NCBI GenBank assembly: GCA_024274855.1
Contig: JAJSAJ010000948.1
Location: 1-32,954 of the forward strand
Reading direction: 5' to 3'
Origin: Planctomycetota bacterium
GTDB lineage: Bacteria > Planctomycetota > Planctomycetia > Pirellulales > Pirellulaceae
Length of the DNA: 32,954 nt
This document shows positions 3,518-29,327 of the stretch, piece by piece. Both the position numbers and the translations under genes were made by a program. How positions within the stretch are numbered: position 1 is the stretch's first letter; every line of letters begins with the position of its first letter. A model generated the notes under the pieces. The model did not search any database and was not told where the DNA came from. It saw only the letters and a program-made list of their open reading frames with translations.

Positions 3518-5029
3518 CTATTCGATTTCCGGCCGCACGTTGCCATAAGACCAAGGTGTATGGACTGGCGGGATTTCTTTTGGCGTCGGACTTTTGCCGG
3601 GCGTCATTTGGCCCAGCAAGTTCAAGCCGGCTTCAAGCATTTGACGACCGGCGGTGAGCTCCAAGTTACTGTAGCTGGTTAAACGGGTTTCGTAACCACC
3701 ACCGTGGGGCCCCATCGCCTCTTCAGTGGGAACATAGCCCACACATCCATTGGCCAATTCGACGGGAAACGTGAATTCGAACGGGCTCTTCTTTTTCAGA
3801 TCCAATCCATACTCGACGAACATCTCGGCTTCGTTGGTTACCAACACAGCCGGCCCGACTTGGATCGCCTGCACTTCAACCTCGACCTCCGGCTGAGCGG
3901 CGATCAGAGCATCCAGCATAAGAGTCTCCTTGGTCCACGTGGCAACATGCGCCGGATCCTTCTCGGCTTCCGCCAGACAACGCTTCACCTTCTCGGGACT
4001 CGGAACGCGACGTTTGATACTCCACACTTTGACCTTGGTATCTAGCGGGACCAGCGAGCCACGATGCATGCTCAACAAGACTTTAACCGCCTCGGCACCA
4101 ATCCGCCCTCCGACGATCGGTCCATCAATGTTGGGGTATGGGCTGAGGTTATCCACTTGAGTGATATCGCCACAGTCACCGTTCAGGAAAACGACGACCA
4201 CATCGTCACCCAGTGAACCGCGGATGACCTGTTCCATGTAGTAGATCCAGTTGGCCGACCACCCACTGGCCCCCGTCGTGCCATGATTCGCATAATTGAC
4301 GACGCATCCAACCAGCTTGCCGGCGGCGTTCCAGGCTCCGATCACGCCAACATCAGGATCGATCGGGCCCGCCGACTCAACAATATCGGGATTCCGTTTT
4401 CCGGGATGGGTAAAAGTCAATCCATTTTTCATTCGGAAGCGACGATTGAAAGCTACTTTGTCTTCGCGACCTCGACCAACGCCGCATTTCGCCTCGGCGC
4501 GGTTCTCATTGGCCAGGCAGACAGCGTTGACAATCTGATTGTGCACATGCTTCAGGTAGGCAGGATCAGCACAGGACGACTGGTCATACGCCAACCTCTT
4601 AACCAGATCCGACGCATGATCGAACTGGCCGGGCTGGACCATGCCCGTCGGGCCGGATGAGTGCGAATGCGAGGCACCGATCAGCACCGCATCGGGGGCG
4701 ATACCACATTTCGTTTCGATTTCTTGCCGCACAGCCTTGACCAGATTCCGGGGCACGATCAACGCATCGATACCAACCAACGCCACGCGCGTCTTGCCAT
4801 CGTCGAATACCGCCGCGCGGACCTTGCACGGATCCTGCGTCCGTTTCAGAAACACTTTATGATATCCGCCCGGCCTCTCCATCCCCGACTTAGGCGAAAT
4901 GTCCATCTCGGCAAACCCGGCTTTGAACGGCTGGGCGGCCTCGGCCGCCAGAGTCCCTCGCACGAAAAACGACACGGTCGCCGCCAGCAACCCAGCCAGC
5001 CTAACATATCGGCGAAGAAGCACGCTCAT
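3518..5029 (-). CDS. Secreted neutral/alkaline ceramidase-like protein
   Basis: Signal peptide, then FKAGFAEMDISPKSGMERPGGYHKVF, VALVGIDALIVPRNLVKAVR, VLIGASHSHSSGPTGM, YANHGTTG, FLNGDCGDITQVD, typical of the ceramidase N-terminal family. Confidence 0.8.
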   Translation of the reverse strand: MSVLLRRYVRLAGLLAATVSFFVRGTLAAEAAQPFKAGFAEMDISPKSGMERPGGYHKVFLKRTQDPCKVRAAVFDDGKTRVALVGIDALIVPRNLVKAVRQEIETKCGIAPDAVLIGASHSHSSGPTGMVQPGQFDHASDLVKRLAYDQSSCADPAYLKHVHNQIVNAVCLANENRAEAKCGVGRGREDKVAFNRRFRMKNGLTFTHPGKRNPDIVESAGPIDPDVGVIGAWNAAGKLVGCVVNYANHGTTGASGWSANWIYYMEQVIRGSLGDDVVVVFLNGDCGDITQVDNLSPYPNIDGPIVGGRIGAEAVKVLLSMHRGSLVPLDTKVKVWSIKRRVPSPEKVKRCLAEAEKDPAHVATWTKETLMLDALIAAQPEVEVEVQAIQVGPAVLVTNEAEMFVEYGLDLKKKSPFEFTFPVELANGCVGYVPTEEAMGPHGGGYETRLTSYSNLELTAGRQMLEAGLNLLGQMTPGKSPTPKEIPPVHTPWSYGNVRPEIE

Positions 5030-6894: not shown

Positions 6895-7314
6895 ATGCCA
6901 AAACACAAACGGGGATTTGCCGTTCGAGCTGTAATCAGCGATCAACGGGGCCGCTGTCTGCTGGTGCGGCGTTCGAATTCATCCAAGTGGTTTGCCGGAA
7001 CCTGGGAATGGCCGGGAGGCAAAGTCGATTCTGGAGAGACCTACGACGTAGCCTTGCATCGCGAAGTCGCTGAAGAGACCGGATTGGAGATCGAGCTGAG
7101 CGGTGTTGCCGGTGCGTATTCGATGGAAGTGGCAGGCAGACAGATCGCCGTATTGTGCCTTGAGGCAGCTTGCATTCGCGGAGACGTCTGTCTCAGTGAA
7201 GAACATGACGACAGCGTCTGGGCACCGATGGCAGATCTATTGCAGTGGGAATTGGCTCCCGATCTTCGCAAGTTCGCGGACGAGTATATCCAACGCACAT
7301 CGGATGGAGGCTGA
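6895..7314 (+). CDS. NUDIX hydrolase
   Basis: Nudix box GGKVDSGETYDVALHREVAEETGLEI. Start set at MPKHKRGFAVRAVISD inside the longer ORF 6796-7314. Confidence 0.93.
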   Translation: MPKHKRGFAVRAVISDQRGRCLLVRRSNSSKWFAGTWEWPGGKVDSGETYDVALHREVAEETGLEIELSGVAGAYSMEVAGRQIAVLCLEAACIRGDVCLSEEHDDSVWAPMADLLQWELAPDLRKFADEYIQRTSDGG

Positions 7315-7317
7315 ACA

Positions 7318-9879
7318 ATGGCAGACAAAACCCAGTTGACCGCAAAGAAGCATCAGGAACAAATCCAGGCTTACGCGAAAGTGCGTGACGTGTACAAATT
7401 GTATGCAGAAGTACTGAAACGGGTCTTCGAGAACGCCTGCAGCATCTCTTTTCCCGAAGCCCTGGTCCAAACCCGAGCGAAAACGCTTTCGAGCTTTGCG
7501 GAAAAGGTAGCTCGTAAGTTCTCGAAATATACGAACGCCGTACAGGACATGACCGATCTGTGCGGAGGACGTGTCATTGTCCAGACGACCGAGCAGGTGC
7601 TGGCCGTCCGAAGGTTCATTGAGGCCAATTTCACCATCATCGAAGCCGACAACAAGACGGCGTTACTCAGTAAAGACACGTTCGGGTACCGCGATATGCA
7701 CTATATCGTTCAGCTGCGAGAAGATAGCGACGAGCTGTTGAGTATTTCGCCGGCGGAACGCGCAAGTATCGGCGATCGCAAGGCGGAGATTCAAGTTCGC
7801 ACCTGGGTGCAACACGCGTGGGCCGACACGCTGCACGATCGAATCTACAAGAACCCGTTGAAGTCGGTCTCGTCGGACATCGCAAGAACGGGTGCTTTGC
7901 TGTCCGCGCTGCTGGAAGAAAGCGATCGTGCATTCAAACGCCTTGCCGACGAACTGGACGGCTTGATCACCAACTACACGGCAATTGCCACCGAAGATGA
8001 GGTCGAGAAGGAACTCAAGATCCAGCAGCTGGTCCTGGACAACGAACCGGACGAAAAGAATAAACCGGCATTGGCAATGAAACTCGCCAAACTGGCACTT
8101 GCATGTGGTAAGGATGCGATCGTCGTGAACACTCTGGAGCCTCACGTTGGGATCCGTGGTGCCAGTCGTTGCGAGTTACTTTCGGATCTTGGATTTGCCT
8201 ACTGCCGCATAAAACGAAGTGAGCCGACGAAGCCGTTGTATTCACGCGGCATAGAGTTTCTTGACGAGTCACTCTGTATTTGCCGGTGTGTGGACGTGCC
8301 CTTTGTTCCACATCTTCGAAAAAACGAGAGTCTTCACGCACGCGCGTTGGCTCGGTTGGCCTGGGCCATGGAAGTGATCCCCGGCGAGGAACATACTGCA
8401 CGCGAGTTTTTCCACCAGGCCCACGAGCATGAACCGGCCAATCCCTACTACCTGGCAAACATGCTCGGATTCGAAATGTACTGCTCGCATCAAGGCGACC
8501 TGCCGACCAGTATGCGGACCACGATACGCGAAGCGATCAGAACTTGTCATGAACACGCAATCAGGCGAATCGAACTTCCGTGGGCTTTTTTCACAGCCGG
8601 TCGTCTCAGTGTTCTGCTCGGTAAATCGAACGACGCACTCAGCTATTACGCTCGCGGCATCGGGCACTGCCTCGAGGGAATCCACTGTATTCCGGAGACC
8701 GCGTTCGACGGTGAGATTCAGTGGCTTACCCGTCTCCATTTCGGGATGCCGACACCTGGCAAGACTCAGCGTGTAATCGATCTGCTTAAGCTCGGCAAGC
8801 AGACCAAGGGTGGCAAGAGATCACCCGACACCGCTTCACCGATCAAAGCCCCCGTGCTGATTATCGCGGGCGGGGCTGCAAGTATCGACGCGGAAATGCT
8901 CGATCGAATCCACCCTTTCCTGAAAACCAGCTTGGAGTATTTCCAAGGAACGGTTATCGCCGGCGGAACGAATGTCGGCGTGCCAGGCCGCGTCGGCGAT
9001 GTGGCGGGCCAACTGGCAGCAGAGAACCGAAAACAGTTTCAGCTTGTCGGCTACGGTCCCGCGATGCTTCCGCAGGGCGTATCGGACCACCCGCATTACG
9101 ACCACTCGATTCATATTGGCGACGACTTTTCTCCCGACCAGATCCTTCGCAACTGGGCCGACATCCTCGCCGCCGGGATCGAACCGCGTCAGGTCATGTT
9201 GCTTGGCATGGGCGGTGGACCACTCAGTGCCGTGGAGTATCGCATCGCGCTCGGCCTCGGCGCCTCAGTCGGGATCGTGATGAACACGGGCGGCGCGGCA
9301 GACGAGTTGCGACAGGACGGACTCTGGAGCGACCGGCCGAACCTCTACCCGCTCCCATTCGACTCTGCAACGGTTCGGTCGTTTATTATTCCACCGCGGC
9401 GAAAGCTCAAACCATCTGTCAAAGAGGCGATGGCCAAGTGCTTTCACGAAATATATGTTGCCGGCAGCACGAGCCGACTACCCGCGAACATGCGGCCGTG
9501 GTCTGAACTCGATAAGACATTCAAGACGGCCAGCATGGAGCAGGCGAAGTACTCGGTTGCGATTCTCGAAGCCGCCGGGTTCGCCGTGACCGAGGTCGCG
9601 GAGGGCGAACCAGACATATTCGAGGACTTCACCGATGAAGAAGTGAATTTCATGGCCGAGATGGAGCATGGTCGCTGGAACGTCGAGCGGCTTCGAAACG
9701 GCTGGCGCTACGGCAAACCACGTGACGACAACATGAAAATCCATGACTGTATCGTTCGGTGGGAAGCCCTGAGCGACGACATCAAGAGTTATGACATCGC
9801 CGCGGTATGCGCTTTCCCCAGTATCCTTGCCGAAGCCGGGTTGGAGATTACTCGGAAGGAGGCAACGGACGACACCTGA
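7318..9879 (+). CDS. RelA/SpoT nucleotidyltransferase - TPR-like - SLOG (LSDAT-like) - RyR domain fusion protein
   Basis: RelA/SpoT: DLCGGRVIV, GYRDMHYIVQL, AEIQVRTWVQHAWADTLHDRIYK. Helical TPR-like middle. SLOG-like: VLIIAGGAAS...GTVIAGGTNVGVPGRVGDVAG...VMLLGMGGGPLSAVEYRIAL. RyR-like C-terminus: NFMAEMEHGRWNVERLRNGWRYGKPRDDNMKIHDCIVRWEALSDDIKSYDIAAVCAFPSILAEAGLEI. ATG lies 3 bp after the NUDIX stop. Confidence 0.85.
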   Translation: MADKTQLTAKKHQEQIQAYAKVRDVYKLYAEVLKRVFENACSISFPEALVQTRAKTLSSFAEKVARKFSKYTNAVQDMTDLCGGRVIVQTTEQVLAVRRFIEANFTIIEADNKTALLSKDTFGYRDMHYIVQLREDSDELLSISPAERASIGDRKAEIQVRTWVQHAWADTLHDRIYKNPLKSVSSDIARTGALLSALLEESDRAFKRLADELDGLITNYTAIATEDEVEKELKIQQLVLDNEPDEKNKPALAMKLAKLALACGKDAIVVNTLEPHVGIRGASRCELLSDLGFAYCRIKRSEPTKPLYSRGIEFLDESLCICRCVDVPFVPHLRKNESLHARALARLAWAMEVIPGEEHTAREFFHQAHEHEPANPYYLANMLGFEMYCSHQGDLPTSMRTTIREAIRTCHEHAIRRIELPWAFFTAGRLSVLLGKSNDALSYYARGIGHCLEGIHCIPETAFDGEIQWLTRLHFGMPTPGKTQRVIDLLKLGKQTKGGKRSPDTASPIKAPVLIIAGGAASIDAEMLDRIHPFLKTSLEYFQGTVIAGGTNVGVPGRVGDVAGQLAAENRKQFQLVGYGPAMLPQGVSDHPHYDHSIHIGDDFSPDQILRNWADILAAGIEPRQVMLLGMGGGPLSAVEYRIALGLGASVGIVMNTGGAADELRQDGLWSDRPNLYPLPFDSATVRSFIIPPRRKLKPSVKEAMAKCFHEIYVAGSTSRLPANMRPWSELDKTFKTASMEQAKYSVAILEAAGFAVTEVAEGEPDIFEDFTDEEVNFMAEMEHGRWNVERLRNGWRYGKPRDDNMKIHDCIVRWEALSDDIKSYDIAAVCAFPSILAEAGLEITRKEATDDT

Positions 9880-19146: not shown

Positions 19147-20361
19147 CTATTTTGGCAGCACGCTGGCAACTGGGTAGCTACGAATGGTTGCCGGTTTTTG
19201 CGTGGCAGGGTGTTGTTTGCCGTCGGTCACCTGCTTGACAATCGATGTGATGTGGAGATCGAGTTCATTGATTTCCAGAAGTCCGTCACGCAAAGTATCG
19301 TACTTGGGATCACTCAGCACCTTGAGGATTGCGTAGGTAAACGCCCCATGCTGAAGGTTGTCCAATTCGACGCTCACTTCCCGCGCCGTAGAGGAAGCAA
19401 AAACAACGCCTCCAATTTCGTCAGAGATCAGGTCTCGCCAGGGGTCTCGGACCAGGGATTTAGCGCCCGTAATCCCAGCGCTGTGGCATGTATCGACGAA
19501 CAAAATCACTTTGCACGGCATGTTCGCGATCAACTGGGTGACCTCACTAAATGCAATTGCGGTGCTTCTTAGCCGTGACAACTGCGTTTCCTGGGTAACC
19601 ATGTGGTAGTTTTGGCGGTGGTCCAATACACCATGCCCGGAAAAGAACAGAATAGCGACGTCATGCTGAGTCACGGAATGGTCGAGCCAATCCATCGCGT
19701 CGCGTACAGCTTGCGACGAGGCGTCTTCTTCAACGAGTACCCGCGAGTGTACGGTCTTGTAGAACCGCCCTTGCTGCCGCTTCCAGATATCTGCAAATGC
19801 GAGTGCGTCTTGATCCGCAAATTTCAGATCTGAAATGTCTGGGTCGGCGTATGCTGATACGCCAACAGCCAACAGGTAAAGATCTGGCTTTATCTCCTGG
19901 CTCGTTTTCCGGTGGACATTCACCGACACCGGATTGCTAATGGACTTGTTCGTCCCGGCGAGAAGCGTAATAACGTTTCGGCCCGGTGCCAGTTGGACGG
20001 CACGTTTAACTTCCACTCGTGTCAGCTGATTGGAAACATGAAGGGGAGCCTGCGGTCTTTCTCGAAGAATGCCCTTGGCACCCGAAGCGCGGCGCCCGTT
20101 CACCAAGACAAAAACGCTTGGCATATCCATTCCGCGACGAAACAACACCTCGCCGCGCAAAGTCACCGTGGATTCGTATGTTGTCAGTTCATCCGTCGGT
20201 GACAGGATGCGGACTTCTGGTGGTTGAAATTCAGAAAACTGCTGCCGGTTGCGTAGATCAATAGCTGGCCGCGACCGCGGAAGTGCCGCGTTCGCCTCGG
20301 TAATCGCCCGCTTGACGTCGCCTGTAGCGACGATCCGGTCGATGATATCCGGTCGGTACAT
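19147..20361 (-). CDS. Caspase-like (peptidase C14) domain protein; 3' half of a split WD40-PDZ-caspase gene
   Basis: LYLLAVGVSAYADPDISDLKFADQDALAFADIW, VAILFFSGHGVLD (catalytic His), VILFVDTCHSAG (catalytic Cys). Upstream frame is open back to a TAG at 20398-20400 (KYFSADRFRGQMYRPDIIDRIV). Confidence 0.9.
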   Translation of the reverse strand: MYRPDIIDRIVATGDVKRAITEANAALPRSRPAIDLRNRQQFSEFQPPEVRILSPTDELTTYESTVTLRGEVLFRRGMDMPSVFVLVNGRRASGAKGILRERPQAPLHVSNQLTRVEVKRAVQLAPGRNVITLLAGTNKSISNPVSVNVHRKTSQEIKPDLYLLAVGVSAYADPDISDLKFADQDALAFADIWKRQQGRFYKTVHSRVLVEEDASSQAVRDAMDWLDHSVTQHDVAILFFSGHGVLDHRQNYHMVTQETQLSRLRSTAIAFSEVTQLIANMPCKVILFVDTCHSAGITGAKSLVRDPWRDLISDEIGGVVFASSTAREVSVELDNLQHGAFTYAILKVLSDPKYDTLRDGLLEINELDLHITSIVKQVTDGKQHPATQKPATIRSYPVASVLPK

Positions 20362-20397
20362 CTGCCCTCGAAAACGATCGGCCGAAAAGTACTTACT

Positions 20398-22380
20398 CTA
20401 CTTCATCGGGCCCTCGTCCACCAACCAGCCAATGAATCGATCACCGCCTGGCGAGCAATCGTAGTACCCTTCTTCGGACCAAAGAACCCAATCGGATGAG
20501 TTAGTCACGAGCAGGATGAGTACGGGAGTGCAAACCGGCAGATCCTTTATCAGAGTCGTCTCGGTTCGAAAGATATTCCCGTCGCGACTCAGTTCGAGGC
20601 TTACCCTTTGGCCTGGCCGAAACTTCATCCGGGTTTCAGGTTCCCCAAAGAGCTTTTCGACCGGGACACCCTCCATGCTCAAGAGTACATCTCCGGGACG
20701 AATTTGATCTCGTCTGGCAACAACGTCGGGAACGGCCGCCACGGTGGGTGCTGAGGCGGACAAGCTGTATTGGAAATCGAAATCCCAAGTCGCCTTAAGT
20801 TGGGTCAGGTTATAAAGCAGGACAACTCCGGCTTCCGTGCCAACAGCTACGAAATCCCGACGGGGCGATTCGCACAAACACCATGGCACGCCAAGCGTCG
20901 GCAGATAACAGAGTTCCTTCATCCGCCCGTTCGAGTCGGGTTTCGGATCCAAAAACAGGATCCCCGGAGGAAGAAGTCCGAATCGTGCTCCTACCGCCAG
21001 TGGATTTCGGACACCGAACCGCGAGTTTCGCAAGAACGAAGCCCAATGACACTCGCCAACCCAATTGGTGAAGTGACTCCAACGTGTACCGTTTCGAAGA
21101 CAGCGGAGCACTTGATACACTCGGGCCTCCGAATCCTGCTCGAAGGCGAGTGCAAGTTGCAAATCGTTTCGTTCGAGCGCCGACCAGTCGTGACATCCCG
21201 ACGCGTCATCCCTGAGTGTGCGCGTCGACAGATCAAACACTCGGTTCAGGCTTGCGTAATGGTTCAAGCCCCAAGCGTCGGGTCCGAACGGTCTTGTCCC
21301 GATGGCCAATCGTTGTCCGGTACTGTCAAACCCGACACTATAGACTGCCTGAGTTACTCCGCGGAAGCAGAACCGCTGCCGACCGGTCGCGATTTCCCAT
21401 ACGTGGATCTCCCCAAGACGATCGAGTGTTGCCGCTAGTTCACAGTTCTTTGACATGGCGGCAGCCAGGACGTCATAACGATTCTCGCGATAGACCTGGG
21501 TCGGGCTCCTTTGTCCAAGTCGATAGATGAACGACCGGTAATCAGGAGCACCATTCCTATCTGAGATCGCGGACACCAAAGCAAGACGTTCACTTTTTCC
21601 CGACTGCCCCAGCCGAATATCCCAGGGCACTACCCTCGTCCATTTCCCCTCGGGAAGTATCGGCCAGGGTGCGGAGGTGATACGATCCACGAAGGCCCGC
21701 AGAGCCCCGGTCGTCTGGCCGGGTGCGATTGGTTTCCATTCGGGAGCTTGCCAGACGCCGAACGATTCGGTCCCCAAAACCAGAAGAGAATGTGAAGTAT
21801 CGGGAAATCCGAAATACTGATACCAACCCATTTTTCGATCCGCCATCGACGCCACAACTCGCCGGGACTTCCAGTTCCAGATCACAATTCGAAAATGGTC
21901 TTCGACAAACATCACCGCAGCCAGGTACGTTCCATCGTATGAGAACGCCAAGTTTTGAATCGGGCCGCTCTTTCCGTCGATCATCTGAAACCGATGTAGA
22001 AACGTGTCGGTAGCATAGACACGAATCGCATACTTTCCGTTTCTCAAATCCGTTCCGACAAGCAACTGTCGCCCGTCCGGCGAAAAAGCAATCGCCTCAT
22101 ACTCGCCGGCGATTTCTCCGAAGTCCCCATAGAGCGTTCTGGCCAGTTCACCAGTTTTCAAACTCCAGACACGAACTTCGGCCATGCTTACGGCGGCGAG
22201 CAACTTGCCGTCGGGGCTGAATGCAATATCGGCCGCCGGTCCAACCCCGACGCCCTTTGTGTCGATGATGATGTCCGGCCCCGATCCCGCGCCGCGATCA
22301 CCTGACTGACCGTGGACGCTGCGACTCTCGATCAAGACAGGTAACAAGGCAATGCAAAAAATCGTGAAAACCGACTTCAA
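20398..22380 (-). CDS. Secreted WD40-repeat protein with C-terminal PDZ-like segment; 5' half of a split WD40-PDZ-caspase gene
   Basis: Signal peptide. WD40-like repeats (IAFSPDGKLLAAVSMAEVRVWSLKTGE, AIAFSPDGRQLLVGTD). PDZ-like QIRPGDVLLSMEGVPVEKLF. Ends DWVLWSEEGYYDCSPGGDRFIGWLVDEGPMK then TAG, same frame as the caspase ORF. Confidence 0.88.
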   Translation of the reverse strand: MKSVFTIFCIALLPVLIESRSVHGQSGDRGAGSGPDIIIDTKGVGVGPAADIAFSPDGKLLAAVSMAEVRVWSLKTGELARTLYGDFGEIAGEYEAIAFSPDGRQLLVGTDLRNGKYAIRVYATDTFLHRFQMIDGKSGPIQNLAFSYDGTYLAAVMFVEDHFRIVIWNWKSRRVVASMADRKMGWYQYFGFPDTSHSLLVLGTESFGVWQAPEWKPIAPGQTTGALRAFVDRITSAPWPILPEGKWTRVVPWDIRLGQSGKSERLALVSAISDRNGAPDYRSFIYRLGQRSPTQVYRENRYDVLAAAMSKNCELAATLDRLGEIHVWEIATGRQRFCFRGVTQAVYSVGFDSTGQRLAIGTRPFGPDAWGLNHYASLNRVFDLSTRTLRDDASGCHDWSALERNDLQLALAFEQDSEARVYQVLRCLRNGTRWSHFTNWVGECHWASFLRNSRFGVRNPLAVGARFGLLPPGILFLDPKPDSNGRMKELCYLPTLGVPWCLCESPRRDFVAVGTEAGVVLLYNLTQLKATWDFDFQYSLSASAPTVAAVPDVVARRDQIRPGDVLLSMEGVPVEKLFGEPETRMKFRPGQRVSLELSRDGNIFRTETTLIKDLPVCTPVLILLVTNSSDWVLWSEEGYYDCSPGGDRFIGWLVDEGPMK

Positions 22381-22781
22381 ATGGCGAGTAATGCAACTTG
22401 GCTAGTGCATGTCAGTGTCTCCATTGAATGGACGGGCCGAGTTCCGGACGGCTGTTGGATTTCCCCAACCCAAGAAAACACAGTCTAGAGAAAACGGAGC
22501 CTCGAAAGAGCCATTGACGCAGCGCAGTATCAGTGTAGCAATTCCCCAACGGTTTGCACGATGTTTTTCCCCTACCAGAGATCCTGATAGACTACCGTTT
22601 TTCCCCTGGCATACGAGCATTTTTTGCGTGAGGCCATGATTTAGAAGATCTCGACAATGCCCAACGGGCATATCGAGAAAAACGCTTACTATGCGTGCTC
22701 TGGAGAAACAGGTATACATTCTTTCAAAGATCACGAAGTATTTCATCTGAGTCGGGAAATCTGGCAAGAGGAGCTAGACCG

Positions 22782-23354
22782 ATGAATGATCGAAACCACG
22801 ACACCGAGCAGCGGGAATTGTCTATCTCGCAAATCGAAAGAATCGACGACCTATGCGGCACTTTCGAGTCGCAATGGCGAGCCGGGGCGAGACCGACGAT
22901 CGAAGATTATCTGGTCATGGTCACGGCACCCTTGCGTTCAACATTGCAGACCGAGTTGATTGCCTTGGAAATCGACCTTCAGCAGGCCAGCAAAGAGCAA
23001 GCCAAGTTGGACGAGTATCACCGACGGTTCCCTTTAGACCGGACGGCCGTCGAGGCCGGTTGGAGGTTGATTGTGGAGCAGAACATAAGAAATGAGGAGG
23101 TTCTGACCACAATCAAGGGATCACAAGATGGCAAACGGGATATGGGGAGCAATACCCCAGTCGTTGGCGACCGCGCCTACGAGGCGACGAAGTCCGATGA
23201 ATTGCCAACGCATATCGGCCGCTATCAGATCCTGAAGGTCTTGGGAGAAGGCGGATTCGGCCGAGTCTATCTGGCATTGGACCTGCAGTTGCAACGACAA
23301 GTCGCCTTGAAAATCGCCGGCAATCGTTGGCTAGCATCTGAAACGAAGATCTAA
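22782..23354 (+). CDS. Ser/Thr protein kinase N-terminal fragment (N-lobe through the VAIK lysine)
   Basis: IGRYQILKVLGEGGFGRVYLALDLQLQRQVALKIAGNRWLASETKI followed by TAA (23352-23354). Start MNDRNHD has AGAGGAG-like sequence upstream. Confidence 0.85.
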   Translation: MNDRNHDTEQRELSISQIERIDDLCGTFESQWRAGARPTIEDYLVMVTAPLRSTLQTELIALEIDLQQASKEQAKLDEYHRRFPLDRTAVEAGWRLIVEQNIRNEEVLTTIKGSQDGKRDMGSNTPVVGDRAYEATKSDELPTHIGRYQILKVLGEGGFGRVYLALDLQLQRQVALKIAGNRWLASETKI

Positions 23355-25244
23355 ATGCTGTTCCATGAGGCCCGCTTGGCCGCGAGTCTGAAGCATCCGG
23401 CGCTGGTAGCCGTTTACGACATCCAACGAGAAGGTGACAACGTTTACATCATCCAGGAGTATGTAGACGGTAAAGATCTCGGCAAATGGGCGGAAGAGAA
23501 TCGGCCGTCCTGCGACCAACTTATCCGAGTCATCCTGGAGCTCGCTCAGGCCATTGGCTTTGCCCATCAAAAGAACCTGGTCCACCGCGACCTGAAGCCA
23601 AGCAATATCCTAATCGATCTCGAGGGACGCGCCCACATAGCCGACTTTGGGCTAGCTTTGCGTGAGAGCGTTCACCGGCTACGTAAGGGCGAGGTATCGG
23701 GCACGCCTGCCTATATGTCGCCCGAGCAGGTGCGTGGCGAAACCCATTTGACAGATGGGCGTTCCGATTTGTGGAGCATCGGTGTCATATTGTACGAGTT
23801 GCTTACGGGGCGCCGTCCGTTTCGAGGTGATACCCTGTCCGAGTTATTTGACGAGATCGAGCATCGCGACCCCAAGCCACTTCGGCAGATCAAGCCGGAG
23901 CTCCCGTCCGAACTGGAACGAATATGCTTGAAATGCCTCGAGAAGCGTCGCACCACGCGGTATAACTCAGCAGCAGAGTTGACCGACGACCTGCAAGCTT
24001 GGCAACAAGAGAAGTCACCGACAAGAGTCGACCGGCAAAATGCAATCAAAGAGATAGCCACGCCACCACGCGTCGTCCCGAAAGGCCTACGGTCATTTGA
24101 TGTGCATGATGCCGATTTCTTTTTGGGGCTCTTGCCAGGCCCACGAGACCGGAATGGGTTGCCCGAGAGCATTCGGTTCTGGAAGAGACGCATCGAACAG
24201 ACAGATCATGATGCTCCGTTTTCCGTGGGGTTAATCTACGGTCCGAGCGGCTGCGGCAAGTCATCGCTGGTCAAGGCCGGCCTGTTGCCCCGACTGGCCC
24301 CGCATGTCACGCCGATTTACGTTGAGGCAACGCCGGAAGACACGGAGTTTCGGCTGAGCATGGCTCTGCGCAGACATATCGAGAGAATTCCTGGCGATGT
24401 CGAACTTCCCGAGTTGCTTGCTGGATTGCGTGCTGGCCAATGGATCGGCAAAGGCAAGAAGACTTTAGTCGTGCTGGACCAATTCGAGCAGTGGTTACAT
24501 GCGAGACGTAACGAGCAAGATACAGATCTCGTACGAGCTCTACGGCATTGTGATGGAGTGCGTCTGCAATGCATCGTGCTGGTACGCGATGACTTCTGGC
24601 TCGCGGCCAGTCGCTTCTTGCAAGATCTTGAGATCCGCTTGCTTGAAGGGAATAATACTGCCTTGGTTGATCTATTCGATCCACTGCACGCCCGCATGGT
24701 ACTCGCCGACTTTGGCCGTGCTTACGACCGCCTTCCGGACGAAACGACGGAGTTATCCGACGAGCAAAACCTTTTTTTGGACCGGGCAGTGGAGGGTCTG
24801 GCCCATGAAGGCAAGATCATCTGTGTCCGCCTGGCTCTCTTTGCCGATATGTTCAAAGGTAAACTATGGAGCACCGACACGCTCACTCGGGTCGGCGGCA
24901 CCGAAGGACTTGGCGTGACGTTCCTGGAAGAGACGTTCGGCCTTCCAACGGCTCCGGCGGCACACCGGTATCACCAAAAAGCGGCTCAGGCAGTGCTGAA
25001 AGCCTTACTCCCTGAAGCGGGACCCGCAATTCGAGGACGCCGTTTATCCTATAGGGGATTATTGGAAGCGTCCGGATACGAGCGCAGAAGGCAGGACTTC
25101 CAGGATCTGATTCGAATCCTGGATAACGAACTCCGCCTGATCACCCCAACGGCTTCACGTGACGAGGATATTGAGGCAGGTAATCCGAACGGGGATCGTG
25201 GCGAAGCGAGCAAGGAGAAAGCGGAGAGGGCACGGAACGAATAA
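23355..25244 (+). CDS. Ser/Thr kinase remainder (alpha-C, HRD, DFG, APE) plus STAND-type NTPase, same frame as the upstream fragment
   Basis: MLFHEARLAASLKHPALVAVYDI, HRDLKPSNILI, ADFGLALRE, GTPAYMSPEQ. NTPase: GLIYGPSGCGKSSLVKAGLLPRL (Walker A), KTLVVLDQFEQWL (Walker B-like). Confidence 0.9.
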   Translation: MLFHEARLAASLKHPALVAVYDIQREGDNVYIIQEYVDGKDLGKWAEENRPSCDQLIRVILELAQAIGFAHQKNLVHRDLKPSNILIDLEGRAHIADFGLALRESVHRLRKGEVSGTPAYMSPEQVRGETHLTDGRSDLWSIGVILYELLTGRRPFRGDTLSELFDEIEHRDPKPLRQIKPELPSELERICLKCLEKRRTTRYNSAAELTDDLQAWQQEKSPTRVDRQNAIKEIATPPRVVPKGLRSFDVHDADFFLGLLPGPRDRNGLPESIRFWKRRIEQTDHDAPFSVGLIYGPSGCGKSSLVKAGLLPRLAPHVTPIYVEATPEDTEFRLSMALRRHIERIPGDVELPELLAGLRAGQWIGKGKKTLVVLDQFEQWLHARRNEQDTDLVRALRHCDGVRLQCIVLVRDDFWLAASRFLQDLEIRLLEGNNTALVDLFDPLHARMVLADFGRAYDRLPDETTELSDEQNLFLDRAVEGLAHEGKIICVRLALFADMFKGKLWSTDTLTRVGGTEGLGVTFLEETFGLPTAPAAHRYHQKAAQAVLKALLPEAGPAIRGRRLSYRGLLEASGYERRRQDFQDLIRILDNELRLITPTASRDEDIEAGNPNGDRGEASKEKAERARNE

Positions 25245-25283
25245 GCCACGGATGATCGCAGGTCACTATCAGAACCTGGAAGT

Positions 25284-28200
25284 ATGAGATGCGGAGATGG
25301 GATGGGCGAAGAAGGACCACCTTGCATCGCCCCGAATACACCACCTGCCACTTGCCGCTACCAACTGACGCATGACTACCTCGTTCCCTCACTCCGCAAA
25401 TGGCTAACGCGCAAACAACGAGAAACACGCCGCGGCCGAGCGGAGTTGAAGCTTGTTGAACGGGCCGCGCAGTGGGCCTCACGATCAGAAAACCGATACC
25501 TGCCGACCGCGTTGGAAGATTTGAGTGTCCGCCTGCTGACTCGACATGAAGAATGGACCGAATCTCAACGTCGGATGATGCACAAGTCGGGCCGCTGGCA
25601 CGGTATGAGGACATTGGCCGTCGTCGGCATGATCCTGGCCGTGCCCGTGACCAGTGTAGTGATTCGCAATGACATACAGGCTGAACGCCGGCGCATTGAG
25701 GCCGAGAATCTGCAGAAACAAAACGCCACACACGCATCAGGCCTAGTCACCGCTGTAATGAAGGCAGACATCCAGCAAGTGCCCGCGATCGTCAAACAGA
25801 TTGGCAACTATCGCCAATGGACCGACCCGATTCTGAAAAGCGAGTACGAAAAATTCGAGGACGATTCGCCCGAGAAACTCAAGATTGCCTTTGCCCTACT
25901 GCCGGTCGATTCACGTCAAGTCGACTATCTCTACAACCGCCTCTTGGAAGCCGAACCGACGGAAGTCGTGGTTGTTCGCGACGCGCTGTTGCCCCACAGA
26001 AAACAGCTCGTTGACCGACTCTGGGGGCTTTTCTGGGGGATAGACAGCGAGGCCCAAGTGGACAAGATGGAGGCGGTGGACGGAGTCAGCAGGCTTGATA
26101 GGGCGGACACGGCAGAGGGAATCGATGGCCTCAAGCAGCTTCGAGCGGCCTGCGCGTTGGCCGTGATGGATGACAACAGCTTAAGGTGGCAGGAAATATC
26201 CAACCGCGTCGTAAGGCAGTTGGTCCACGTACGACCCGCGTTCGTTACCTATTGGCAGCAGGCACTCCGGCCGGTGAAGCGTGTTCTGTCCCCGTCACTG
26301 GCCGAGGCATGTCACGATCCGACTTTGACATCGACTGAACGCGCGTTAGCAACCGATCTGCTGGCCGACTACGCGGCCAACGCGCCTGAAGTGCTGGCAG
26401 ATGCGATCCAATACGCAGACGACGATCAGTTTGGCGTCTTCTTTCCATTGCTTGAAGCCAAACCGACCTCCGCCGTACCGGTCCTGGAGTCGTGTCTCGC
26501 TGAAAACCCAGCTTTCAACTGGCACGATTCGCCATTGGATCCGGCCTGGAAAACGCCCGACGCGTCGGTCGTCCAGAAAATTCAAGACGCTCATGGCAGA
26601 TTGATGGCTCGGTTCGCATTCTGTCAGACCTTGCCTTTAACGGACTTTCTGAATGTAGCCGAATCGTTGCGCGAATGCGGGTACCGACCAACGCGATTCC
26701 GCCCGTACTATTCTGGAGAAAAGGAGATCCACGTATCCGCCATCTGGGCCCGCGACACCAGCTCATGGCGAACCAAAATCGGCACTGTCGACGAAATCCG
26801 GTCTGAAAACAGGCGTCTGCAAGCCGATAAGTGGCAGGCCGTCGACATTGCCGGGTTCATGGCCCCGGACGCGGACGGCAAGTCTTCGCTGCTGTTTGCC
26901 GCATTATGGAATCAGGAGGGTGATGAGGCTCCTGCTCGCAAGTTGCTCGTTGGATTGCCTGCGGAAAATTGGTCGGCAGTTCGTCAATTTCTAGACAAAG
27001 CCGAATTGCGACGAGTGAACTGCTACAACGCGTCAACCACGCCGGAAGGCAAAACGCTGATTTCTGTCATTTGCAGCAAGAATGGCTCACATTCGTTTGC
27101 GTACAACGAAATTGGGTCTGGGTATTCGGGCGAGCTGCGTCCCGGCTTGTTGCAGGTCGACGTGGGGGTCGGCCGCTCGCCAAAACGCGAAAGCACGCAA
27201 CAACGTTACACGCGACAACTGGAAACTGCGGAACAAGCGATTGCCGCCGAACCGGATGATATTTCTGCGCGCCTCAGACATTTCATTGCCTGCTATCGTC
27301 TCGGCAAAAACGAGCAAGCTCTGGACGACATGGATCGGATATTCGCGACCCAGAAGAACGTATCGGCTCGCAGCTACCACCAGCGACGGTCGCTGATCCT
27401 TGCTCGCCTGGGCAAGAAACAGGAAGCGGAGAAGGAACTCGCAGAGTTTCAGAAGCTCTCCACGAGTGACGGTGAAAAGGCCTTCGTCAAGACCGTGGTC
27501 GCAGCACATTTGGGTACGGGGGATACGGCAATGGAGCGATTGGAACAAGAAGTTGCCCAACACAAGAGGGACATGGTTTTCCTGATCTGGGCAGCTCGTG
27601 CGTATAGTGTCGTTTCGGGGATCGTTCACAATCCGGACAAACGGGCCGCCTATGTCGAAAAAGCCATTGACTTGATCCAAAAAGGAATTGCGGAAGGCTT
27701 TGAGAACTACGCGGGCCTGACAAACGATTCGAACCTTGAACCGCTCGAGACAAGTCCGAGATTTGTCAAATTGCTGAAGAAGTATGGACTTGACCGCCGC
27801 TATACGGGCGTGTGGATAGAATCCATGTCATTCGAGTCGACCGAGGTTCATGGACTCTCCCCCCCAGACCAACTTGCTCGATCCATTGAATTGATCGAAC
27901 AAGGCTATCGTCCCGTGTCAATTGCTGCATGCAACCTCAACACGATGTTTGACTCCGCCAGGATTTTGTCGGACTCTCCCAACTCGCTCGCGCCCGCAAA
28001 CACGGGGCTTCCAGAACTCGAAACAGCCACAGTCTGGCATCGTCCCTTGATTCCGGAAGAAACGAAAGAAACCCTTGCCAAACGACAAGCCAATGCAGCA
28101 GTCACTCTTCTGAATCTCAACAAACCGTCGTCCGCCTGGCCCATCTTGCGTCACGCTCCGGACTCGCGAACTCGCAGTTACCTGATCCATCGCATGCGTC

Positions 28201-29327
28201 CATTGCACGTTGATCCCCAAATCCTGGCGGAACGTTTTCTCGACTCGTCTGAGGAAATATCGATCCGTCAGGCCTTGGCGCTGGCCCTTGGCGAGTTTGC
28301 CGCGGATCAACTGGCGGCGTCAAAGCGAGACGGGCTGTTGGAATCGCTTTTGAACATCTACCGCAACCATCCCGATCCAGGCCTCCACGCGGCAGTACGA
28401 TGGTTGCTGTGCCACTGGGGACACAAAAACCAAGTCTCGAAACTCGACGCGAGAATCCAGGAAACAGAAGCCCAATTGGCTGCCCGAAAACCGACCGACC
28501 GACGCCAGTGGTACGTGACGACACAAGGTCACACCATGGTGGTTATTCAAGGCGGCAGTTTCCTGATGGGCTCGCCGTTGACTGACCTGGATCGTTTGCA
28601 TGGCGAAACGCGCTATCGAAGAGACGTAGACCGCCGTTTTGCGTTGGCAGCAACAGAAGTGACACGTGCCCAGTGGCGGAAGTTTCAGCAAGCACATCCG
28701 GAAGAGACCAATGATGTCATGAAGATGCCGGAGTTTCTGGCGGTCGTCCTCACAGAAGATTCTCCGGTCGTGGCCGTCAGCTGGTATGAATCGGCAGCGT
28801 ACTGTAACTGGCTGAGCAAACAGGAAGGAATTCCGGAAGAGCAATGGTGTTATGTGCGTAACGCCGACGGCAAGTTCGCCGCTGGAATGCGGCCCAAGCC
28901 GAATTACCTGCTGCTGAATGGCTACCGCTTGCCAAGTGAAGCAGAATGGGAGTACGCCTGCCGGGCCGGTGCCACGACCTCGCGGTACTTCGGCCACACT
29001 GATGAACTATTGACCGACTATGCCTGGTATATGGCGAACAGCAACCATCACGCGTGGCCGACAGGCACGTTGAAACCAAATGATTTTGGGTTATTCGATA
29101 TGCATGGTAACGCCAATGAATGGTGCCACGGTCGGTGGACAAAACGCGGCAATGCCGGGAAGGACGTGGGAGATGCGGCACCGGTGCAGATTGCCGCGGA
29201 TCGCGCAGCTCGCGGCGGCAGCTTCGTCGAAACAGCGTCTCTCATACGTTCCGCGAGCGCCTTGGGCTTCCGGCCGGATGCGTTTAACTACGCTACCGGT
29301 TTCCGCGTGGCCAGAACTTATCATTGA
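25284..29327 (+). CDS. C-terminal part of the kinase-NTPase protein: YQLTHDYLVPSLR linker, TM helix, helical/TPR-like region, formylglycine-generating-enzyme-like (FGE/SUMF1) domain
   Basis: RYQLTHDYLVPSLRKWLTRKQRETRRGRAELKLVERAAQW, TM TLAVVGMILAVPVTSVVI, FGE-like MVVIQGGSFLMGS...PVVAVSWYESAAYCNWLS...YRLPSEAEWEYACRAGA...NDFGLFDMHGNANEWC...RGGSFVE...GFRVAR. In frame with 23355-25244 across TAA 25242-25244. Confidence 0.9.
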   Translation: MRCGDGMGEEGPPCIAPNTPPATCRYQLTHDYLVPSLRKWLTRKQRETRRGRAELKLVERAAQWASRSENRYLPTALEDLSVRLLTRHEEWTESQRRMMHKSGRWHGMRTLAVVGMILAVPVTSVVIRNDIQAERRRIEAENLQKQNATHASGLVTAVMKADIQQVPAIVKQIGNYRQWTDPILKSEYEKFEDDSPEKLKIAFALLPVDSRQVDYLYNRLLEAEPTEVVVVRDALLPHRKQLVDRLWGLFWGIDSEAQVDKMEAVDGVSRLDRADTAEGIDGLKQLRAACALAVMDDNSLRWQEISNRVVRQLVHVRPAFVTYWQQALRPVKRVLSPSLAEACHDPTLTSTERALATDLLADYAANAPEVLADAIQYADDDQFGVFFPLLEAKPTSAVPVLESCLAENPAFNWHDSPLDPAWKTPDASVVQKIQDAHGRLMARFAFCQTLPLTDFLNVAESLRECGYRPTRFRPYYSGEKEIHVSAIWARDTSSWRTKIGTVDEIRSENRRLQADKWQAVDIAGFMAPDADGKSSLLFAALWNQEGDEAPARKLLVGLPAENWSAVRQFLDKAELRRVNCYNASTTPEGKTLISVICSKNGSHSFAYNEIGSGYSGELRPGLLQVDVGVGRSPKRESTQQRYTRQLETAEQAIAAEPDDISARLRHFIACYRLGKNEQALDDMDRIFATQKNVSARSYHQRRSLILARLGKKQEAEKELAEFQKLSTSDGEKAFVKTVVAAHLGTGDTAMERLEQEVAQHKRDMVFLIWAARAYSVVSGIVHNPDKRAAYVEKAIDLIQKGIAEGFENYAGLTNDSNLEPLETSPRFVKLLKKYGLDRRYTGVWIESMSFESTEVHGLSPPDQLARSIELIEQGYRPVSIAACNLNTMFDSARILSDSPNSLAPANTGLPELETATVWHRPLIPEETKETLAKRQANAAVTLLNLNKPSSAWPILRHAPDSRTRSYLIHRMRPLHVDPQILAERFLDSSEEISIRQALALALGEFAADQLAASKRDGLLESLLNIYRNHPDPGLHAAVRWLLCHWGHKNQVSKLDARIQETEAQLAARKPTDRRQWYVTTQGHTMVVIQGGSFLMGSPLTDLDRLHGETRYRRDVDRRFALAATEVTRAQWRKFQQAHPEETNDVMKMPEFLAVVLTEDSPVVAVSWYESAAYCNWLSKQEGIPEEQWCYVRNADGKFAAGMRPKPNYLLLNGYRLPSEAEWEYACRAGATTSRYFGHTDELLTDYAWYMANSNHHAWPTGTLKPNDFGLFDMHGNANEWCHGRWTKRGNAGKDVGDAAPVQIAADRAARGGSFVETASLIRSASALGFRPDAFNYATGFRVARTYH

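What the first reader, a model, noticed from the sequence alone, without database searches (positions are those of the whole stretch)
6895..9879. NUDIX + RelA/SpoT-TPR-SLOG-RyR two-gene unit: candidate nucleotide-alarmone signalling or defence system
The 853-aa ORF directly shows a RelA/SpoT-type nucleotidyltransferase core (DLCGGRVIV, EIQVRTWVQHAW), a helical TPR-like middle, a SLOG-like Rossmann segment (GGTNVGVPGRVGD) and a RyR-like C-terminus (MEHGRWNVERLRNGWRYG...SYDIAAVCAFPSILAEAGLEI). The NUDIX stop and the next ATG are 3 bp apart, so co-translation is likely. From established knowledge: RelA/SpoT domains make (p)ppGpp-like alarmones, NUDIX enzymes hydrolyse nucleoside diphosphate derivatives, and SLOG and RyR domains have been proposed by comparative genomics as nucleotide-derivative sensors or processors in bacterial conflict systems. 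Inference: one operon combines synthesis, sensing and removal of a nucleotide signal. The SLOG type resembles the LSDAT domain of TRPM channels, next to a ryanodine-receptor domain, so two domains known from animal ion channels sit on one bacterial alarmone synthetase.
Basis: partly seen in the sequence, partly recalled or inferred. Interest (0 to 1): 0.87.

Follow-up and report, generated by a model that had tools for sequence, protein, structure and literature searches.

The report
Alarmone synthetase with ion-channel sensor domains
A two-gene unit pairs an enzyme that should make a stress-signal nucleotide, fused to two nucleotide-pocket domains known from animal ion channels, with an enzyme that should destroy such nucleotides; the pair recurs across some 18 microbial phyla and looks like a mobile signalling or anti-virus module.

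Summary
Window 6895-7314 encodes a MutT/NudG-type NUDIX hydrolase; 3 bp later, 7318-9879 encodes a RelA/SpoT-TPR-SLOG-RyR protein. A confident AlphaFold2 model matches SAS1 alarmone synthetase and RyR Repeat12; the SLOG part alone matches TRPM channels. Synthetase catalytic residues are invariant in 70 homologues, which come from 24 phyla including archaea. A NUDIX gene lies beside it in 52 of 83 loci, and beside none of 26 other RelA loci. The NUDIX partners fall into three clades, and in four loci an RSH-type HD hydrolase takes their place, so the partner probably erases the synthetase product. The RyR domain keeps, at exact spacing, the catalytic dyad and adenine-stacking tryptophan of phage RyDEP, which binds or cleaves cyclic-ADP-ribose immune signals. 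TIR genes are enriched nearby, and 20 loci carry further RyR proteins. The window's order almost lacks RelA genes, so this is not ordinary stringent response. Best reading: a nucleotide cue, perhaps ADP-ribose-type, sensed by SLOG-RyR gates a RelA-type output that NUDIX or HD removes; probably a conflict module. Biochemistry and defence are untested.

The parts
6895..7314 (+). NUDIX hydrolase, 139 aa, MutT/NudG-like; predicted eraser of the synthetase product
   Evidence: PF00293 5e-20; NudG/MutT models best; PDB 3grn, 2rrk NudG; PADLOC PDC-S07 9.6e-23
7018..7086 (+). canonical Nudix box GX5EX7REUXEEXGU
   Evidence: read directly from the sequence; canonical in 40 of 57 NUDIX hits, most of the rest belonging to one separate clade with a variant box
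7306..7317 (+). ribosome-binding-site-like GGAGG overlapping the NUDIX 3' end, then a 3-bp intergenic gap: likely translational coupling
   Evidence: inference
7318..9879 (+). 853-aa RelA/SpoT-TPR-SLOG-RyR protein
7471..7854 (+). RelA/SpoT synthetase domain (residues 52-179); R53 K55 K63 D80 G83 R85 Y124 E157 Q159 H173 Y177 invariant in 70 of 70
7993..8811 (+). TPR-like helical region (residues 226-498)
   Evidence: AlphaFold2 secondary structure; Foldseek also returns TPR proteins SPY and OGT
8833..9399 (+). SLOG domain, TRPM/LSDAT type (residues 506-694)
   Evidence: LSDAT_prok in 65 of 70 members; Foldseek top 50 is 49 TRPM structures plus TM1055
9514..9855 (+). RyR (Repeat12-type) domain (residues 733-846); H784, W787, H809, D826 at the spacing of RyDEP H75, W78, H100, D117

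Best explanation
A two-gene nucleotide-signalling unit. The RelA-type domain transfers pyrophosphate from ATP to an acceptor (a guanosine or adenosine nucleotide, less likely tRNA). It is held off or switched on by its own C-terminal SLOG-RyR module, which has the pockets of ADP-ribose/adenine-nucleotide binding domains and is read here as the sensor of an NAD-derived or other nucleotide cue. The NUDIX partner, replaced elsewhere by an RSH-type HD hydrolase, keeps the product low until the trigger and clears it afterwards. In a lineage that lacks RSH enzymes the product would be a private signal or a growth-arresting effector, most plausibly used in phage defence or another biological conflict. 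Shown by computation: architecture, folds, conserved catalytic residues, recurrent pairing, partner displacement, neighbour enrichment. Inferred: activity, acceptor, ligand, gating and purpose.
For: Synthetase: invariant ATP/Mg/acceptor motif residues in 70 of 70; the profile matches SAS1/RelQ structures (2be3 5.8e-24, YjbM 2.6e-20) far better than CapRel (4.5e-7) or FaRel2 (5e-4); Foldseek top hits are B. subtilis SAS1 (TMt about 0.8). Eraser: NUDIX within 1.1 kb on the same strand in 52 of 83 loci and at least 18 named phyla; 53 hits in the first kb of flank against 4 in the rest of about 0.8 Mb; 0 of 26 other RelA_SpoT loci have it; three distinct NUDIX clades, with RelA proteins 59% identical paired with NUDIX proteins only 25% identical; an RSH-type HD hydrolase (PDB 7p1y 2.5e-33, also Rel and MESH1; NCBIfam spoT_relA) upstream in 4 loci nested among NUDIX-bearing relatives. 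The nearest characterised enzymes, NudG and MutT, degrade (p)ppGpp to pGp and let spoT be deleted in E. coli (PMC5845004); NahA is another NUDIX alarmone hydrolase (PMC7584652). Sensor: the RyR domain keeps H784 and D826 in 70 of 70 and W787 in 68 of 70, at the spacing of RyDEP's catalytic dyad and adenine-bracing Trp (PMC13232231); W787, R791, R/K802 align with the AMP-PCP contacts of RyR3 (PMC12627627); the SLOG is TRPM type. Context: TIR genes 5.8 per 100 kb within 2 kb against about 1 beyond; flanks not shared with a 72%-identical relative; only 7 of 196 genomes of the order carry any RelA_SpoT domain.
Against: No enzymatic, binding or phage data. About a third of loci show neither NUDIX nor HD next door (some are cut by contig ends), so the partner is not obligatory, at least not in cis. 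PADLOC hits do not separate near from far genes. RyDEP's phosphate-contacting His (H809 here) is Ser or Asn in most homologues, so ligand or activity may differ. NUDIX enzymes are promiscuous; the substrate cannot be read from sequence. The neighbour-enrichment ratios ignore relatedness among loci.
Confidence: 0.55

Rival explanations
1. CBASS-like direction: the RelA domain makes the second messenger and RyR domains are its receptors, both in cis and in neighbouring effectors (TrkA_N-RyR membrane proteins, AAA-RyR proteins).
For: 20 of 83 loci encode further RyR proteins (leaving out L062, whose hit is its own frameshifted piece), 13 loci with TrkA_N-RyR and 11 with AAA-RyR, often adjacent; their RyR domains keep the H..W core. 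In L083 the RelA protein lacks RyR and an AAA-RyR gene sits 4 bp upstream.
Against: Most loci, the window included, have no second RyR gene. The known ligands of RyR domains are adenine nucleotides and cADPR (PMC12627627, PMC13232231), not (p)ppGpp.
Confidence: 0.2
2. The NUDIX acts on the ADP-ribose-type ligand of the SLOG-RyR sensor, as NUDT9H does in TRPM2 channel-enzymes, not on the RelA product.
For: SLOG is TRPM type and Foldseek finds the TRPM2 MHR1/2-NUDT9H structure; TIR genes nearby could make cADPR.
Against: The NUDIX is NudG/MutT-like with no ADP-ribose pyrophosphatase as a leading hit; its replacement is an RSH-type HD hydrolase whose known substrates are alarmones. NUDIX is absent from the RelA loci lacking SLOG-RyR, which both readings allow.
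Confidence: 0.15
3. toxSAS-type toxin-antidote pair in which the RelA domain pyrophosphorylates tRNA 3'-CCA or makes (p)ppApp, and the NUDIX/HD gene is an enzymatic antitoxin.
For: toxSAS FaRel is encoded beside an SAH enzyme that neutralises its products (PMC11782079), the same logic as the HD and NUDIX partners here.
Against: The RelA domain profile is nearest to housekeeping SAS1/RelQ, not to CapRel or FaRel2. No type II antitoxin gene was recognised, and the partner can be missing.
Confidence: 0.2
4. Ordinary small alarmone synthetase feeding the housekeeping stringent response.
For: SAS1-like core.
Against: No other RelA_SpoT gene in this draft genome (73.6% complete), and only 7 of 196 mostly complete genomes of the order have one; PVC bacteria lack long RSHs (PMC3153485); patchy, mobile distribution.
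Confidence: 0.05

Closest known systems
Small alarmone synthetases SAS1/RelQ (B. subtilis YjbM, S. pneumoniae 2be3) and SAS2/RelP
   Same: RelA/SpoT synthetase fold and all signature residues; best structural and profile match
   Different: Those are about 210-aa single-domain enzymes; here the domain is fused to TPR-SLOG-RyR and paired with a NUDIX or HD gene
toxSAS toxin-antitoxin modules (FaRel/ATfaRel SAH, FaRel2, CapRel)
   Same: RelA-type synthetase next to a hydrolase that can erase its products; link to phage defence
   Different: RelA domain distant from CapRel and FaRel2; sensor domains in cis; NUDIX as the main partner, which I found described nowhere for toxSAS
NUDIX alarmone hydrolases NudG, MutT (E. 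coli), NahA (B. subtilis), Ndx8 (Thermus)
   Same: Same superfamily, NudG/MutT being nearest; shown to hydrolyse (p)ppGpp (PMC5845004, PMC7584652)
   Different: Those are stand-alone housekeeping genes; here genetically tied to one synthetase family
RyR Repeat12 domain family PF02026: RyDEP phage proteins and animal RyR R12
   Same: Fold, catalytic dyad positions and adenine-stacking Trp
   Different: RyDEP is a phage counter-defence protein and R12 an ion-channel repeat; here the domain is the C-terminus of a cellular synthetase
TRPM MHR1/2 SLOG (LSDAT), with NUDT9H in TRPM2
   Same: Foldseek top 50 nearly all TRPM; a NUDIX enzyme associated in both
   Different: No channel; NUDIX is a separate gene of a different subfamily
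Thoeris (TIR cADPR signalling to SLOG-bearing ThsA)
   Same: SLOG domains as readers of NAD-derived signals; TIR genes enriched near this family
   Different: No TIR gene beside the window pair; output is a RelA-type synthetase, not an NADase

Membership tests
RelA/SpoT synthetase (PF04607) | Pfam match above the gathering score and synthetase fold | tested here: met
   60.8 bits against 27; Foldseek SAS1 TMt about 0.8
RelA/SpoT synthetase (PF04607) | catalytic R-x-K...S...K, D-x-x-G-x-R, G-Y, E-x-Q-x-R, H...Y residues | tested here: met
   R53 K55 K63 D80 G83 R85 Y124 E157 Q159 H173 Y177 70 of 70; S59 69 of 70; R161 66 of 70
RelA/SpoT synthetase (PF04607) | pyrophosphokinase activity | not testable with these tools
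   needs enzyme assay
toxSAS toxin-antitoxin | sequence nearest to toxSAS (FaRel, FaRel2, PhRel, CapRel) subfamilies | tested here: not met
   SAS1/RelQ 5.8e-24 against CapRel 4.5e-7 and FaRel2 5e-4 among solved structures
toxSAS toxin-antitoxin | toxicity neutralised by the adjacent gene | not testable with these tools
   needs expression test
SLOG superfamily, LSDAT/TRPM type | profile match and fold | tested here: met
   LSDAT_prok 29.7 bits against 25.4 for the isolated domain (24.4, just below, for the whole protein), 65 of 70 members match; Foldseek TRPM
RyR domain PF02026 | profile match and Repeat12 fold | tested here: met
   48.4 bits against 27.4; Foldseek RyR3 R12 and the Bt-hRyR chimera
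RyDEP glycosidase | His/Asp dyad, Trp and phosphate-binding His | tested here: inconclusive
   dyad 70 of 70, Trp 68 of 70, second His only 22 of 70 (H in the window); most RyDEP homologues tested bind but do not cleave
NUDIX alarmone hydrolase | Nudix fold family and box | tested here: met
   PF00293 5e-20 and canonical box in the window gene
NUDIX alarmone hydrolase | hydrolysis of (p)ppGpp or a like product | not testable with these tools
   needs assay
Known anti-phage defence system | match to a named, validated PADLOC system | tested here: not met
   only single-gene candidate models PDC-S33 and PDC-S07 match
Thoeris | TIR signal-maker gene beside the SLOG-bearing gene | tested here: not met
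   no TIR gene adjacent in the window (Pfam on most of its larger ORFs); TIR within 3 kb in 19 of 83 loci of the family

The most novel reading that the evidence does not exclude
A signal relay not described before in what I could read: an NAD-derived (ADP-ribose-type) immune signal is read, and perhaps consumed, by a SLOG-RyR module that switches on a RelA-type synthetase, so one nucleotide alarm is converted into another, with a dedicated NUDIX or HD eraser. This would be alarmone-based immunity in lineages that otherwise have no (p)ppGpp synthetase.
Probability: 0.3. Interest if true: 0.92.

Novelty: new variant of a known kind. Interest (0 to 1): 0.78.

Why it matters
It would join two signalling worlds usually kept apart, (p)ppGpp-type alarmones and ADP-ribose-type immune nucleotides, in one polypeptide. 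It would give the TRPM-type SLOG and RyR domains of animal ion channels a prokaryotic context with a testable ligand. It would also explain what a RelA enzyme does in Planctomycetes and other groups without a stringent-response enzyme, and show a NUDIX enzyme serving as the eraser of a dedicated alarmone synthetase. The family is widespread (24 phyla, archaea included), yet no functional description turned up in the papers I could search.

Tried and rejected
Housekeeping stringent response: rejected, since the order almost lacks RelA_SpoT genes. Phage-borne unit: viral contigs and phage records give only RelA-domain matches, none full-length, and plasmid records none covering 80% of the query. 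Defence-island enrichment by PADLOC: near and far genes do not differ; only TIR and RyR/TrkA genes stand out. My first strict Nudix-box pattern missed 17 of 57 hits, most of them one clade with a variant box, so the pattern was not used as a criterion. Literature: the 2015 comparative-genomics paper that introduced SLOG/SLATT (Burroughs et al., doi 10.1093/nar/gkv1267) is not held, so this domain combination may already be listed there; this caps the novelty claim. RyR-domain search in phages gave 3 weak hits. No complex of the RelA protein and NUDIX could be modelled.

Full report
Observation. The NUDIX gene runs from ATG 6895 to the stop at 7312-7314. The next gene starts at ATG 7318, 3 bp later, with a GGAGG inside the NUDIX 3' end, so translational coupling is likely. 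The 853-aa product has RelA_SpoT, LSDAT_prok (SLOG) and RyR domains by Pfam; the SLOG match is just under its cut-off for the whole protein and above it for the isolated domain. An AlphaFold2 model from 70 homologues has mean pLDDT 91.7 and pTM 0.88. Foldseek of the whole model returns B. subtilis SAS1 first, then RyR Repeat12 structures and the TRPM2 MHR1/2-NUDT9H piece. The SLOG segment alone (pLDDT 95.7) returns TRPM channels in 49 of its 50 best hits.

Family. One scan of genome contigs gave 185 relatives, of which 80 are held; they come from 24 named phyla, with 5 archaeal loci, and every title is marked MAG. With the window and two further loci there are 83 distinct loci. Seventy full-length proteins were aligned; R53, K55, K63, D80, G83, R85, Y124, E157, Q159, H173 and Y177 are invariant. 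The profile is closest to SAS1/RelQ and far from CapRel and FaRel2. No full-length copy was found in phage, viral or plasmid collections.

Partner. A NUDIX gene lies on the same strand within 1.1 kb in 52 of 83 loci, mostly upstream, sometimes downstream. In the first kilobase of flank there are 53 NUDIX hits; in the remaining 0.8 Mb there are four. None of 26 other RelA_SpoT loci that lack SLOG-RyR has one. The NUDIX proteins form three separate clades. RelA proteins 59% identical (window, L038) carry NUDIX proteins only 25% identical. In four loci (L063, L064, L068, L072) an HD protein sits in the upstream place. It resembles RSH hydrolases (7p1y 2.5e-33, Rel, MESH1; NCBIfam spoT_relA). Those four fall in a fully supported clade with a NUDIX-bearing member, nested among NUDIX-bearing relatives. 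Repeated swapping of two unrelated hydrolases beside one synthetase is the strongest sign that the partner removes the synthetase's product. The nearest characterised NUDIX enzymes do this: NudG and MutT turn (p)ppGpp into pGp and permit deletion of spoT in E. coli (PMC5845004), and NahA makes pGpp (PMC7584652).

Sensor. RyR3 Repeat12 binds AMP-PCP and ADP through Trp880, Lys884 and Arg895 (PMC12627627). By the phmmer alignment these are W787 (W in 68 of 70), R791 (R or K in all) and R802 (R or K in 69). A 2026 preprint shows that phage RyR-domain proteins (RyDEP) bind, and in one case cleave, 2'/3'cADPR with H75 and D117 as the dyad, W78 bracing adenine and H100 on the phosphates (PMC13232231). 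The window protein has H784, W787, H809 and D826 at identical spacing. The dyad is invariant in 70 of 70; the second histidine is kept in 22. With a TRPM-type SLOG beside it, the C-terminus is best read as an ADP-ribose/adenine-nucleotide pocket, sensor or enzyme. That link was not in the finding.

Context. TIR genes occur at 5.8 per 100 kb within 2 kb and about 1 beyond, in 19 loci within 3 kb. Twenty loci carry another RyR gene: TrkA_N-RyR membrane proteins in 13, AAA-RyR proteins in 11. DUF4062 motifs occur in 15 loci and SLOG-SLATT proteins in some. PADLOC hits do not separate near from far genes, so a defence-island claim is not made. The 72%-identical relative L022 shares no flanking gene order with the window, and L023 has an integrase next to the pair; the unit looks mobile. 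A homologue contig from a Pirellulales bin counts as 'same order' as the window. In that order only 7 of 196 genomes have any RelA_SpoT domain, and the window's draft genome has no other, in line with the absence of long RSHs from PVC bacteria (PMC3153485).

Judgement. Shown by computation: domains, folds, conserved residues, pairing, displacement, neighbour enrichment. Inferred: that the enzyme is active, what it modifies, what the sensor binds, the direction of control, and a role in defence. A toxSAS-like antidote pair, a CBASS-like arrangement with RyR effectors, and a TRPM2-like use of the NUDIX on ADP-ribose remain open. Earlier description of this domain combination cannot be excluded, because the 2015 SLOG survey was not readable here.

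Noticed in passing
window 19147-29327: Cluster of a caspase-fold peptidase, a WD40 protein (both minus strand), a protein kinase-nSTAND1 protein and a large FGE-sulfatase-domain protein (plus strand): possibly a separate conflict or signalling module.
   Followed up: no
L002 / G000:C784: The same genome encodes an AAA-RyR protein on another contig, with an extra C-terminal part that looked NUDIX-like to the eye but had no Pfam match.
   Followed up: partly
L100:5166-6977, L051, L057, L091 and others: TrkA_N-RyR membrane proteins of about 610 aa encoded beside this family in 13 loci; candidate nucleotide-gated membrane effectors.
   Followed up: partly
L036:360-3059, L038:5899-8685, L080, L083: AAA-RyR proteins whose N-terminus resembles PfkB sugar kinases by eye (no Pfam match); in L083 the RelA protein lacks its own RyR and this gene lies 4 bp upstream, so RyR may act in trans.
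   Followed up: partly
L086:12945-14681, L040, L101, L121: Sigma-54 activators near several loci; L086 is confirmed by Pfam, and one near gene matches PADLOC RtcR-type models.
   Followed up: no
L095 (Sigynarchaeota), L099 (Thermoplasmatota): Archaeal copies that end after SLOG without RyR; L095 has a second, broken copy upstream.
   Followed up: no
window 4909-5001: ARAGORN tRNA-Glu call on the minus strand inside a 503-aa ceramidase-like ORF; probably false.
   Followed up: no
L063 and L068: A locus titled Methanosarcina (L063) carries a copy very close to a Bacteroidales one (L068): either recent transfer or a mis-binned contig.
   Followed up: no
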